Assembly (NCBI RefSeq): GCF_022354825.1
Contig: NZ_CP031168.1
Coordinates: forward strand, 4,031,501-4,095,500
Reading direction: 5' to 3'
DNA length: 64,000 bases
Source: Paenibacillus sp. H1-7
GTDB taxonomy: Bacteria > Bacillota > Bacilli > Paenibacillales > NBRC-103111
Positions 32,229 through 49,706 of the stretch are shown one piece after another. Numbering within the stretch: the stretch's first letter is position 1; each line of letters opens with the position of its first letter. The notes under the pieces were generated by a model that did not search any database, was not told the origin of the DNA, and worked only from the letters and a program-made list of their open reading frames with translations. The position numbers and the translations under genes are program-made.

Positions 32229-32861
32229 ATGGAATTACAGCTGGCATTAGATCTTGTGGATATTCCTCAGGCGAAGGAATTGGTCAAGGAAGTAGCGGAA
32301 TATATCGATATAGTTGAAATCGGCACACCGGTTGTCATTAACGAAGGATTGCGTGCGGTCAAAGAATTGAAGGAAGCCTTTCCTTCCTTGAAAGTACTGG
32401 CCGATCTGAAAATTATGGATGCGGGTGGCTATGAAATTATGAAAGCTTCCGAAGCCGGAGCGGATATTATCACCGTGCTCGGCGCAACCGACGATATGAC
32501 GATTAAAGGTGCCGTTGAAGAAGCGCGCAAACAAAATAAGAAAATTATGGTCGACATGATCAATGTAAAAAATATCGAGCAGCGCGCACAAGAGATCGAT
32601 GCGTTGGGAGTAGATTATATATGCGTGCATACCGGATACGACCTTCAAGCCGTTGGCAAAAATTCCTTCGATGAGCTGCTAACGATCAAGCAGGTGGTCA
32701 AAAATGCTAAAACCGCGATTGCCGGAGGCATCAAGCTAGGCACATTGCCGGAGGTTATCAAGGCACAGCCGGATCTGGTTATTGTGGGCGGTGGAATTAC
32801 CGGGCAGCAGGACAAACGAGCGGTAGCAGCAGAAATGCAAAAAATGATCAAGGCAGGCTAA
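32229..32861 (+). CDS. hxlA: 3-hexulose-6-phosphate synthase
   Basis: A 210-residue TIM-barrel aldolase of the orotidine-5-phosphate decarboxylase suprafamily. LALDLVDIPQA (residues ~5-15) and VLADLKIMDAGGYE (~55-68, the D-x-K-x-x-D active site) are diagnostic, and IAGGIKLGTLPEV and VGGGIT bind phosphate. It condenses formaldehyde with ribulose 5-phosphate. The next gene, 4 bp downstream, encodes the isomerase that completes the RuMP formaldehyde-fixing reaction. In non-methylotrophs this pair detoxifies formaldehyde. ATG 32229 follows GGGAGTGAG by 7 nt. Confidence 0.95.
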   Translation: MELQLALDLVDIPQAKELVKEVAEYIDIVEIGTPVVINEGLRAVKELKEAFPSLKVLADLKIMDAGGYEIMKASEAGADIITVLGATDDMTIKGAVEEARKQNKKIMVDMINVKNIEQRAQEIDALGVDYICVHTGYDLQAVGKNSFDELLTIKQVVKNAKTAIAGGIKLGTLPEVIKAQPDLVIVGGGITGQQDKRAVAAEMQKMIKAG

Positions 32862-32865
32862 CCCC

Positions 32866-33426
32866 ATGCCGACGAATCATTATGCAGAGGCTATTGCTCG
32901 CGAGCTGCAGCAATCGGTACAGTATATAGCCCATGCGCAGACCGACAAGCTGGAGAATGCTATTGCAGAAGCCTCCAACGTCTATGTGGCCGGAGCAGGA
33001 CGATCCGGGCTGATGGGGCGTGCTTTCGCCATGCGGTTAATGCACTTGGGGATTACATGCTATGTGGTAGGGGAGACGGTAACACCGGGAATGCGAGAAG
33101 GCGACCTGCTGATCATCGGTTCCGGTTCAGGGGAGACGAAGAGTCTGGTATCGATGGCGGATAAAGCCAAGAGCTTGAATGCTCAAGTGGCGCTGGTCAC
33201 CATAAACGCTGAATCAACCCTAGGTCGAAAATCGGATGTTGTAGTTACTCTGCCAGGGGTAACTAAAGACCAATCGGCCGGAAGCGGCGTGGAGACCATA
33301 CAGCCGATGGGCTCGCTGTATGAACAGACATTGTTATTGTTCTACGATGCGGTTATTCTAGGGCTAATGGCCAAGCGCGGGCTAAGCTCATCTGCGATGT
33401 ACGGCAGACATGCCAATCTAGAGTAG
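32866..33426 (+). CDS. hxlB: 6-phospho-3-hexuloisomerase
   Basis: A 186-residue SIS-domain isomerase. VYVAGAGRSGLMGRAFAMRL (residues ~43-62) and LLIIGSGSGETKSLV (~84-98) bind the sugar phosphate; QPMGSLYEQTLLLF is the conserved C-terminal helix of PHI enzymes. It converts hexulose 6-phosphate to fructose 6-phosphate, joining formaldehyde carbon to glycolysis. It starts 4 bp after hxlA and so is translated from the same mRNA. Confidence 0.95.
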   Translation: MPTNHYAEAIARELQQSVQYIAHAQTDKLENAIAEASNVYVAGAGRSGLMGRAFAMRLMHLGITCYVVGETVTPGMREGDLLIIGSGSGETKSLVSMADKAKSLNAQVALVTINAESTLGRKSDVVVTLPGVTKDQSAGSGVETIQPMGSLYEQTLLLFYDAVILGLMAKRGLSSSAMYGRHANLE

Positions 33427-37970: not shown

Positions 37971-38813
37971 TTACGACCGCAGCAGCGAGAGATCAAACTC
38001 GGGAACAAGGCCTTCCTGAGAAGCGCGATGAAGCAGTGCGGTTACAGCGGCATAGCCGTCCTCACCCAAATTCCCCGTGAATTTGTTCACGTACAGATCA
38101 ATGTGCGCCTGCGCCACCTCGGGAGACAGCTCTTGAGCATGGCTCATCACATAGGGTCTCGATAGCTCCGGATGTGCCCATGCATACTCAACGGATGCGC
38201 GAGTCCATTCAGCCAGAGAGGCCAAATCCATGGAACGGCGGGCGATAATGGCGCCGAGCGGGATCGGCAGTCCGGTGTCGCTCTCCCACCAGCTTCCCAT
38301 ATCGGCCAACAGCGTCAGCCCGTAGGAAGGATAAGTGAAGCGGGCTTCATGGATAACAAGCCCTGCATCGATGATACCGTCGCGAACGGCGGGCATAATT
38401 TCGTGAAAAGGCATCACGACAATTTCGCCGACTCCGCCCGGAACGTTCTGAGCAGCCCAAAGGCGGAACAACAGGTAAGCGGTGGACCGTTCGCTCGGCA
38501 CCGCAACGCGGCGGCCGCTGAGCACGGAAGGGTCGCTCGTTGCCGTCAAACGGCCCGACGTAAGGACGAGCGGGCCGCAGCCGCGACCCAGCGCACCGCC
38601 GCAAGGCAGCAGCGCATAGTCTTGTAATACCCATGGCAATGCGGCATAAGAGATTTTGAGCACTTCCGGTCCGGTGCCGGATGCTGCCCAGTTGTTCGTG
38701 ATGTCGATATCGGCATACGTAACCTCAAGCTCAGGTGCGCCGGGAATCAGCCCGTGAACCCAAGCGTGAAAGACGAACGTGTCATTAGGACAAGGTGAAA
38801 AGGCAATCTTCAT
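37971..38813 (-). CDS. mqnD: 1,4-dihydroxy-6-naphthoate synthase
   Basis: A 280-residue periplasmic-binding-protein-like enzyme of the futalosine menaquinone route. IAFSPCPNDTFVFHAWVHG (residues ~3-21) is the diagnostic N-terminus; KISYAALPWVLQDYALLPCG, VIHEARFTY with the active-site His, and MGSWWESDTGLPIPLGAI match the family. It converts cyclic de-hypoxanthine futalosine to 1,4-dihydroxy-6-naphthoate. ATG 38813 has AGGAGG 7 nt upstream and overlaps the mqnB stop codon (ATGA). Confidence 0.95.
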   Translation of the reverse strand: MKIAFSPCPNDTFVFHAWVHGLIPGAPELEVTYADIDITNNWAASGTGPEVLKISYAALPWVLQDYALLPCGGALGRGCGPLVLTSGRLTATSDPSVLSGRRVAVPSERSTAYLLFRLWAAQNVPGGVGEIVVMPFHEIMPAVRDGIIDAGLVIHEARFTYPSYGLTLLADMGSWWESDTGLPIPLGAIIARRSMDLASLAEWTRASVEYAWAHPELSRPYVMSHAQELSPEVAQAHIDLYVNKFTGNLGEDGYAAVTALLHRASQEGLVPEFDLSLLRS

Positions 38814-39469
38814 TTCAATACCTCCTGTAGTACGGTACCGGCCGCTTCCAATGCGGCCAAAGCATCCCCGATACGCCATGCCGACCGATCTCTCGGTCCA
38901 ACGGCGTTCGAGATAGCGCGCAGCTCCAATACGGGCAAGCCGTATTCCTGGGCTGCGCTCGCTGCGCCGAAGCCTTCCATCGCTTCGGCAGCGGCTCCGG
39001 GCACGCGCTCGGCTAGCGCGGCCGCCGTAGCAGCGGACCCTGTCACCGTGGACAGGGTGAGCACCGGCCCCAGCTGCGCGGGGATCCCCGCAGCAGCGAG
39101 CGCATCCGCCAGCCGCTTCGCCCGGCTGGCGTCAACGGGCACCCTGGACGAGCCGAAGCCGAGCTCGTCCAGGGTGGAGAAGCCCTCAGGCGTCTCGGCG
39201 CCGAGGTCGGCGGCGATGATATCGCTCGCTACGACGAGCGAGCCGACTTCCGCCCTACCGCTGAAGCCGCCTGCGATGCCGGCGACGACGACAAGATCGT
39301 AGCGCGCGGCAGCCAGCGCTTTCGTCGTGCGGATGGCCGACGTCACCGGCCCCACGCCTGCGGCGATAACCTCAAACCGGGGGTTATCGGCAAGCCCGCG
39401 CTGCACGGCGTCTCTTTCGGCGGAGACCGCGGTTACTACGAGGACTTTCAGCTCCTGCGGTTCTTTCAT
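38810..39469 (-). CDS. mqnB: Futalosine hydrolase
   Basis: A 219-residue member of the nucleoside phosphorylase/MTA nucleosidase fold. VLVVTAVSAERDAV (~9-22), AAGVGPVTSAIRTTKAL (~36-52), VVVAGIAGGFSG (~61-72) and AAEAMEGFGAASAA (~165-178) match MqnB, which releases hypoxanthine from futalosine. ATG 39469 follows AAGGAG by 9 nt. It is translationally coupled to mqnD. Codon usage is unusually GC-rich (many GCG/GCC) compared with neighbours. Other mqn genes are not in this window. Confidence 0.9.
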   Translation of the reverse strand: MKEPQELKVLVVTAVSAERDAVQRGLADNPRFEVIAAGVGPVTSAIRTTKALAAARYDLVVVAGIAGGFSGRAEVGSLVVASDIIAADLGAETPEGFSTLDELGFGSSRVPVDASRAKRLADALAAAGIPAQLGPVLTLSTVTGSAATAAALAERVPGAAAEAMEGFGAASAAQEYGLPVLELRAISNAVGPRDRSAWRIGDALAALEAAGTVLQEVLK

Positions 39470-39656
39470 TAGAATGATCTCCTTCATTGAATCAATATAG
39501 GCAACCTTCATGACCAGGTAATAGAAATAATAAGCATAAAGAAAATTATAGTACACTTTGCGGAAATTGCAAAGAAACACGCGAGTGATGAGCTGCTGTT
39601 CATAAGGAATGCAGTTCACAATTTGAAGCTTGTCGCGGCTAGGAGGCTGTGGTAAT

Positions 39657-48330: not shown

Positions 48331-48359
48331 TTGTTAAAATACAAAGCATATGGTAAAAT
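48331..48359 (+). promoter_or_regulatory. Promoter for the riboswitch-controlled gene
   Basis: TTGTTA (48331-48336), 17-bp spacer, TAAAAT (48354-48359) with TG one base before the -10 box. Transcription would start about 10 bp before the riboswitch. Confidence 0.75.
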
Positions 48360-48376
48360 CCAAACTAATTGAAAAA

Positions 48377-48530
48377 GGATCTTCGGGGCAGGGTGCAATT
48401 CCCGACCGGCGGTAAAGGGTCGTACGTCATGACCCGCAGCCCGCGACTCGTTCATCGTGTTAGCCGCGATGCACGACTGATTTGGTGAAACTCCAAAGCC
48501 GACGGTATAGTCCGGATGGGAGAAGGTCAA
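48377..48530 (+). ncRNA. FMN riboswitch (RFN element)
   Basis: The conserved RFN segments occur in order: GGATCTTCGGGGCAGGGTG, ATTCCCGACCGGCGGT, CAGCCCGCGA, then GGTGAAACTCC, AAGCCGACGGTATAGTC and GGATGGGAGAAGG. The ends GATCTTC and GAAGGTC pair as P1. It senses flavin mononucleotide and normally shuts off riboflavin synthesis or uptake genes. The next gene encodes an EamA-type transporter, implicating it in flavin transport. Confidence 0.95.
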
Positions 48531-48600
48531 AACAAGTTTGTAGTTTGGTGCGTTCACTTTGATGTGAAAAAACGTTCCAGATCCAAGCCTGTTTCAGTAT

Positions 48601-48637
48601 GCCCCGTTGTCATTATGATAACGGGGCTGACTTCTTT
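48601..48637 (+). terminator. Riboswitch expression-platform hairpin
   Basis: GCCCCGTTGTCAT and ATGATAACGGGGC form a stem of up to 13 bp (one G-U) followed by TGACTTCTTTC. It lies 70 nt after the FMN aptamer and 30 nt before the ribosome binding site, fitting FMN-dependent transcription termination. Confidence 0.7.
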
Positions 48638-48676
48638 CGAAGCTTCCTTTTCAAAAATAAGGAGGTTGGATTGGAT

Positions 48677-49666
48677 ATGGAAAATGTATCATCGATTAAC
48701 CCGTCCGTACGGCAAGAGCCGTCCCGCACGGGAATCCGCAACGGAGTATGGCTGGTTGCACTGGGAGCTGCACTGTGGGGCGTAGACCCGCTATTCCGCA
48801 TTTTGCTGCTTAAGTATTTTACATCGACTCAGATCGTACTTATCGAACACGTGCTTTTGCTATTTTACTCCGTACCGATATTGTGGCTGTACCGTAAATC
48901 GCTCCGCGGCTTGAACCTGCGCCATATTGGTGCATTGCTGTTTATATCCTGGGGCGGCTCTGCTATCGCGACGATCATGTTCACTTCAGCTTTTGCGCAT
49001 GGTGATTTGAACGGCGTACTATTGCTGCAAAAGCTCCAGCCATTGTTCGCCATCCTGATGGCAAGATGGATTTTGAAGGAAATGCTTCCGGCACGGTTTT
49101 TCATTCTGGTTATTGTGGCTCTGGCGGGCACGTACTTGCTGACGTTCGGCATAACGTTTCCTTTTGACGGACTTTCCCGTTTTGGGGTGATCGGGGGTCT
49201 GTTATCGATAGGTGCTGCAGCTTTGTGGGGCGGATCTACGGTTATGGGGCGTTTGCTGCTTGATAAAATGCCGTTTGAAGCCGTTACGGCGCTGCGCTTT
49301 ACGCTAGCCTTGCCGCTGCTGTTCGCAACTGCCTGGGTTGGAGGAGAGAGCTGGAACTGGCCGGCTCAACCGACCGAATGGTTCGCCGTTTCGGTAAATA
49401 TGCTGCTGCAAGCCTTTTTGCCCGGATTATTGAGCTTGCTCCTGTACTACAAAGGACTCTCAGGGACCAAAGCATCGTATGCCACACTAGCGGAGCTGTT
49501 CTTTCCGGCCATCGGTGTGCTGGTGAATTGGCTTGTATTCCAACAGCAAATTACAGTGGCGCAAGTCGCCGGCTTCCTGTTGATCTGGTTCATGCTGTTC
49601 CAGCTGTCCAGGCAGCAGGACGGGAAGCAAGAGAGCACCGTAGCGATGCAGCAAGCAGCAAGTTAA
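48677..49666 (+). CDS. EamA/DMT family transporter, candidate riboflavin/flavin-precursor transporter
   Basis: A 329-residue ten-helix drug/metabolite transporter with two EamA repeats (~22-155 and ~170-315). Landmarks: GVWLVALGAALWGVDPLF (helix 1), HGDLNGVLLLQKLQPLFAIL (helices 3-4) and ALWGGSTVMGRLLLDKMPFE opening repeat two. It is the only gene under the FMN riboswitch, so flavin or precursor uptake is inferred. Predicted EamA-type flavin transporters (RibN, ImpX) are known elsewhere. Start is ATG 48677 or TTG 48671 (GGAGG five nt before the TTG). Confidence 0.85.
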   Translation: MENVSSINPSVRQEPSRTGIRNGVWLVALGAALWGVDPLFRILLLKYFTSTQIVLIEHVLLLFYSVPILWLYRKSLRGLNLRHIGALLFISWGGSAIATIMFTSAFAHGDLNGVLLLQKLQPLFAILMARWILKEMLPARFFILVIVALAGTYLLTFGITFPFDGLSRFGVIGGLLSIGAAALWGGSTVMGRLLLDKMPFEAVTALRFTLALPLLFATAWVGGESWNWPAQPTEWFAVSVNMLLQAFLPGLLSLLLYYKGLSGTKASYATLAELFFPAIGVLVNWLVFQQQITVAQVAGFLLIWFMLFQLSRQQDGKQESTVAMQQAAS

Positions 49667-49674
49667 GTAAGGAA

Positions 49675-49706
49675 AACCGTCCTGGATCAGGACGGTTATT
49701 TTTTTC
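49675..49706 (+). terminator. Terminator after the EamA gene
   Basis: AACCGTCCTG-GAT-CAGGACGGTT followed by ATTTTTTT. Confidence 0.9.

What the first reader, a model, noticed from the sequence alone, without database searches (positions are those of the whole stretch)
48377..49666. FMN riboswitch controlling only an EamA-type transporter
Seen: a complete RFN element, a downstream hairpin able to act as terminator, and a single ten-helix EamA gene, then a terminator. Known: FMN riboswitches regulate riboflavin synthesis or uptake, usually ribU or rib operons in Firmicutes; EamA-type flavin transporters (RibN, predicted ImpX) exist elsewhere. Inference: this protein imports riboflavin or a precursor (or exports excess flavin).
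Basis: partly seen in the sequence, partly recalled or inferred. Interest (0 to 1): 0.65.

Follow-up and report, generated by a model that had tools for sequence, protein, structure and literature searches.

The report
FMN-riboswitch-controlled ImpX-like riboflavin transporter
A vitamin B2-sensing RNA switch controls one membrane transporter gene that is most likely a riboflavin importer related to the known ImpX, so the find is real and conserved but of a known kind.

Summary
Confirmed. A full FMN aptamer (RF00050, 114.8 bits) at 48375-48531 precedes a terminator hairpin (48601-48627) and one EamA gene (48677-49666, ten hydrophobic segments) with its own terminator. All 48 close homologs in 98 related genomes carry the riboswitch directly upstream, as do 35 of 40 further homologs from a class survey. 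All 49 genomes with the gene (own included) have two FMN riboswitches; 3 of 49 without it do. The host has ribD-E-BA-H under its other FMN riboswitch, and no RibU-type gene was found. The protein and Fusobacterium ImpX, the family with published riboflavin uptake, are reciprocal best hits and form a 100/97-supported clade that leaves out 17 host paralogs and E. coli RhtA, YddG and EamA. Identity is only 29-30%, below the 38% default of the ImpX survey, so I call it ImpX-like. The leader has an OFF-switch layout, which favours import over export. Best reading: riboflavin importer, a new member of a known kind; transport untested. The more novel lead: 10 of 99 loci lack the riboswitch; five of those sit in an MCP-DICT-EamA gene array and one lies among F420-cofactor genes.

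The parts
48331..48359 (+). promoter-like site TTGTTA-17-TAAAAT with TG before the second hexamer
   Evidence: consensus match, 9 of 12; not evidence of function by itself
48375..48531 (+). FMN riboswitch aptamer (RFN element)
   Evidence: RF00050, 114.8 bits, E 5.1e-26
48384..48390 (+). aptamer core stretch CGGGGCA, one side of the proposed antiterminator
   Evidence: complementary to 48600-48606; layout conserved in 45 of 54 leaders tested
48600..48606 (+). TGCCCCG, other side of the proposed antiterminator, at the foot of the terminator hairpin
48601..48627 (+). leader terminator hairpin followed by TGACTTCTTT
   Evidence: 12 pairs, -21.0 kcal/mol
48659..48665 (+). ribosome-binding site AAGGAGG
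   Evidence: sequence; same kind of site before the homologs
48677..49666 (+). EamA transporter gene, 329 aa, ImpX-like
   Evidence: PF00892 2e-29; reciprocal best hit with Fusobacterium ImpX; tree
49675..49697 (+). intrinsic terminator after the gene
   Evidence: 10-pair stem, tail ATTTTTTTCC

Best explanation
A monocistronic flavin-uptake gene under feedback by an FMN OFF riboswitch. When FMN is low, the aptamer core (48384-48390) pairs with the 5' arm of the leader hairpin, the terminator cannot form, and a ten-helix EamA permease of the ImpX-like lineage is made, which brings riboflavin into a cell that can also synthesise it. When FMN is high, the aptamer folds around FMN, frees the terminator and stops transcription. 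Shown by computation: aptamer, hairpin, gene, conserved linkage, relation to ImpX, rib operon elsewhere, no RibU-type gene found. Inferred: FMN binding, the OFF direction, the substrate and the direction of transport.
For: Aptamer 114.8 bits. Riboswitch directly upstream in 48 of 48 close homologs, 4 of 4 of a more distant family and 35 of 40 class-survey homologs. 49 of 49 genomes with the gene have two FMN riboswitches, against 3 of 49 without. Reciprocal best hit with F. vincentii ImpX, itself behind an FMN riboswitch, and a 100/97 clade with it. F. nucleatum ImpX supports growth on low riboflavin (PMC4418817). Terminator/antiterminator layout in 45 of 54 leaders against 0.2% in mononucleotide shuffles.
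Against: Identity to ImpX is only 29-30%. Ten of 99 loci of the wider clade lack the riboswitch, so the clade may hold other substrates. F. vincentii ImpX was named by context, not by a published label. The U-run of the leader terminator is weak, and the antiterminator duplex of the window alone is matched by 23 of 500 shuffles. Nine of 54 leaders, among them F. vincentii, fail the strict layout test. No transport or binding data exist for this protein.
Confidence: 0.8

Rival explanations
1. It imports a flavin-related compound other than riboflavin (a precursor, an analogue or a deazaflavin), with FMN as the feedback signal.
For: A riboswitch-less homolog in Thermomicrobium roseum lies with cofD and cofC, genes of the deazaflavin cofactor F420, inside the same clade.
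Against: The host has a riboflavin operon under the same kind of riboswitch, and the nearest tested relative, ImpX, takes up riboflavin (PMC4418817).
Confidence: 0.12
2. It exports excess flavin.
For: Several EamA proteins are exporters, e.g. E. coli RhtA, YddG and EamA as annotated.
Against: The leader layout predicts less transporter when FMN is high, the wrong sign for a pump of excess; the three E. coli exporters fall outside the clade.
Confidence: 0.05
3. An ordinary amino-acid or metabolite exporter with a riboswitch next to it by chance.
For: Annotation gives only EamA; the single NCBIfam hit is an amino-acid/amine transporter model far below its cut-off (44.8 against 230.2 bits).
Against: 48 of 48 close homologs keep the riboswitch, and 17 host paralogs and three E. 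coli exporters fall outside the clade.
Confidence: 0.02

Closest known systems
ImpX of Fusobacterium nucleatum (compared here through F. vincentii, L071:2483-3385)
   Same: EamA fold family, FMN riboswitch directly upstream, single gene, prototrophic host, reciprocal best hit, one supported clade
   Different: only 29-30% identity; riboflavin uptake shown for F. nucleatum ImpX (PMC4418817), not for this protein
RibN of alpha- and gamma-Proteobacteria
   Different: sequence relation not tested, no RibN sequence found; reported only from Proteobacteria
RibU (ECF S-component)
   Same: the usual FMN-riboswitched riboflavin transporter of Firmicutes (PMC3766115 and PMC4418817, passages)
   Different: a different protein family (PF12822); the only PF12822 match in this genome is BioY-like (identification recalled)

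Membership tests
FMN riboswitch (RF00050) | covariance-model score over the gathering score, full length | tested here: met
   114.8 against 66.2 bits, positions 1-138 of 138
FMN riboswitch (RF00050) | binds FMN and changes expression | not testable with these tools
   needs in-line probing or a transcription assay
EamA family (PF00892) | two EamA repeats, ten helices | tested here: met
   PF00892 with two stretches, 103.1 bits; ten hydrophobic segments
ImpX | FMN riboswitch upstream, single gene | tested here: met
   48 of 48 close homologs with the riboswitch
ImpX | bidirectional best hit with Fusobacterium ImpX | tested here: met
   with F. vincentii as stand-in for F. nucleatum
ImpX | one clade with ImpX apart from other EamA proteins | tested here: met
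   100/97 support, 60 rows; many long branches outside the clade
ImpX | over 38% identity and at least 80% coverage to the prototype (published default, adjustable) | tested here: not met
   29-30% identity, 88% coverage; so filed as ImpX-like, not as ImpX
ImpX | riboflavin uptake | not testable with these tools
   needs rescue of a riboflavin auxotroph
RibN | sequence relation to RibN | not tested
   no RibN sequence found in the collections
RibU | ECF S-component domain PF12822 | tested here: not met
   the protein is PF00892 only; the genome's one PF12822 match is BioY-like

The most novel reading that the evidence does not exclude
The ImpX-like clade is a family of (deaza)flavin permeases whose control has been swapped in evolution: in most members an FMN riboswitch, but in five Bacilli genomes of two families the riboswitch is absent and the gene stands last in an array of an MCP-like gene, a DICT-domain gene and EamA. 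A flavin-linked transporter would then be tied to a signalling module that may sense light or flavin. The DICT domain was found in exactly 3 of 98 relatives, the same three that carry a riboswitch-less homolog of 44-47% identity.
Probability: 0.25. Interest if true: 0.55.

Novelty: new member of a known kind. Interest (0 to 1): 0.3.

Why it matters
It names the probable riboflavin-uptake gene of a large group of Bacilli in which the gene would otherwise be annotated only as an EamA/DMT transporter (in the host itself no RibU-type gene was found). It extends the ImpX-like lineage well beyond Fusobacterium, and it offers riboswitch-bearing and riboswitch-less homologs for a direct transport comparison.

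Tried and rejected
Considered and rejected: a chance riboswitch match (score far over the cut-off, 48 of 48 close homologs); RibU (only a BioY-like PF12822 match); an amino-acid exporter (outside the clade); export of excess flavin (wrong regulatory sign).

Led nowhere: two DNA-pattern scans of genome contigs for F. nucleatum impX found nothing; F. vincentii ImpX was then met in a 2.1 Mb record filed as a plasmid. Plasmid records with FMN-riboswitch-like DNA were opened in search of RibN without success. A search of solved structures gave no match. The AlphaFold model from the single sequence was poor (mean pLDDT 58.5, pTM 0.34), so no fold search was run. Paper searches with EamA and FMN riboswitch, Paenibacillus, FMN riboswitch and riboflavin transporter, RibN/EamA terms, RFN/impX/PF00892 terms, Brevibacillus and ImpX listed no paper that I could see to describe this ortholog group; supplementary tables of PMC4418817 could not be read, so it may be listed there. 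The founding ImpX paper of 2002 is not held. The test whether the five DICT-linked genes form one clade gave p 0.037, with the group named after the tree was seen, so I claim no two independent origins.

Full report
Observation. The window holds one Rfam match, a complete FMN riboswitch at 48375-48531 on the + strand (114.8 bits). A promoter-like site lies just upstream (48331-48359). Some 70 bases after the aptamer comes a 12-pair hairpin, 48601-48627, -21.0 kcal/mol, with a modestly T-rich tail. A ribosome-binding site and an ATG at 48677 open a 329-residue EamA protein with ten hydrophobic segments and most positive charges in the loops that would face inside. A terminator follows at 49675-49697.

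Genome setting. It has two FMN riboswitches: this one, and one before ribD-ribE-ribBA-ribH (gene names read from the translations, recalled). A search for the ECF S-component family PF12822 found one match, next to an ECF-type ATPase gene, which I read as BioY; B. subtilis rang in the control, so a RibU should have been seen. The cell is thus a probable riboflavin prototroph whose only FMN-riboswitched transporter is this EamA gene.

Conservation. Of 98 related genomes, 58 have some match. Besides the own genome, 48 hold a close homolog (57-81% identity), and all 48 have the FMN riboswitch directly upstream (29). Three more homologs of 44-47% identity lack it; the other matches are weak or partial. 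Counting riboswitches per genome: 49 of 49 genomes with the close gene have two; of the 49 without it, 42 have one, 4 none and 3 two (one of these with a match under the cut-off). A phylum sample of 398 added four homologs with the riboswitch, all in one family, and one without. A class sample of 398 gave 60 genomes with a match at E 1e-30 or better, 41 of them not yet examined; I fetched 40 of these 41 (G819 left out), and 35 have the riboswitch. Over all surveys, with the window, Fusobacterium and Thermomicrobium, 89 of 99 loci examined have it. The ten without are L053, L054, L055, L070, L072, L159, L162, L164, L166 and L169. The genomes are related, so these are not 99 independent events.

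Relation to ImpX. A 2.1 Mb record filed as a plasmid of Fusobacterium vincentii holds an EamA gene directly behind an FMN riboswitch. I take it as ImpX by this context; F. nucleatum ATCC 23726 itself was not obtained. The window protein finds only this gene in that record (E 8e-22), which holds eight two-domain EamA genes (my count). In the host genome, with twenty two-domain EamA genes (my count), ImpX finds the window gene first (2.4e-20), then another at 1.5e-9. A tree of 60 proteins puts ImpX and the window group in one clade of 32 rows (100/97), apart from 17 of the 19 other two-domain EamA genes of the host, 6 of the 7 others of Fusobacterium, and E. coli RhtA, YddG and EamA (2 and 1 genes not put in). 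The tool warned of many long branches outside this clade. Identity is only 29-30%, under the 38% default of the published survey, so I say ImpX-like. That survey (PMC4418817; abstract, Results and Homology search sections and passages read) reports ImpX in Fusobacteria, Firmicutes and Proteobacteria, commonly as a single gene with an FMN riboswitch, only in bacteria that also make riboflavin, and shows growth rescue by F. nucleatum ImpX.

Mechanism. In the window leader the aptamer core stretch CGGGGCA can pair with TGCCCCG at the foot of the hairpin (for this duplex alone 23 of 500 mononucleotide shuffles do as well). Of the EamA leaders, 54 were given to a test of the layout (window, 48 close homologs, four of the second family, F. 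vincentii); the 35 riboswitch-bearing class-survey leaders were not. A strict criterion (hairpin, T-rich tail, 5' arm complementary to the aptamer core) is met by 45 of 54, against a mean of 0.2% in mononucleotide shuffles; the rib-operon leader of the same genome does not meet it. A looser version gave 52 of 54, without a shuffle control. In L066 and L069 the core reads TCGAGG instead of TCGGGG and the hairpin arm has changed to match. The core cannot serve both the FMN-bound fold and the antiterminator, so FMN should promote termination. That sign fits an importer and not a pump for excess flavin. FMN binding, the sign and transport are inferred, not measured.

Exceptions. Five of the ten homologs without a riboswitch lie in an array with an MCP signalling gene and a DICT-domain gene directly upstream: three in the host's family (L140, L141, L142) and two in another family (L199, L200; similarity search). 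Among 98 relatives DICT was found in three, exactly these three. A DICT query found nothing in the riboswitch-bearing loci held, most of which reach only about 700-1500 bases beyond the gene. [quoted passage not shown] The homolog of Thermomicrobium roseum lies behind cofD and cofC and before a nitroreductase gene, i.e. with F420 genes; a review passage names T. roseum an abundant F420 producer (PMC8498797). The other four (L070, L159, L166, L169) showed no common pattern. These exceptions weaken any claim that the whole clade is FMN-controlled, and they are the most novel lead.

Verdict. A real, well conserved, FMN-controlled ImpX-like transporter, most probably a riboflavin importer; a new member of a known kind. 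My paper searches showed no paper on this ortholog group, but supplementary tables could not be read.

Noticed in passing
L140:1707-4616, L141:1927-4657, L142:1899-4641, L199:3552-6158, L200:1799-4427: Riboswitch-less ImpX-like genes stand last in an array MCP signalling gene - DICT gene - EamA, in two families; DICT occurs in 3 of 98 relatives, exactly those three with such a homolog.
   Followed up: partly
L072:916-4129 (Thermomicrobium roseum plasmid): An ImpX-like gene without riboswitch lies between cofD-cofC (F420 synthesis) and a nitroreductase gene, as if it carried a deazaflavin.
   Followed up: partly
L081:416-2462 and L080:3267-3417: Odd extra FMN riboswitches: in G079 one stands before a methyltransferase gene and an EamA gene that did not match the ImpX-like protein; in G070 one has no sizeable gene directly behind it.
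   Followed up: partly
L066-L069 against L165-L178: Homologs of a family outside the class (f20) are nested inside those of family f153 of the host's class, which suggests transfer between classes.
   Followed up: no
L071 (NZ_CP084075.1): A 2.1 Mb Fusobacterium vincentii record filed as a plasmid looks by its size and gene content like a chromosome.
   Followed up: no
L005:477-590; L010:3285-3489; L011:3216-3416: Neighbouring riboswitches near ImpX-like genes: a guanidine-I riboswitch, and glycine riboswitch pairs.
   Followed up: no
window 32229-33426 and 37971-39619: Frames that read by eye like 3-hexulose-6-phosphate synthase plus isomerase (ribulose monophosphate pathway) and like MqnD plus futalosine hydrolase (menaquinone); recalled from the translations, not tested.
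   Followed up: no
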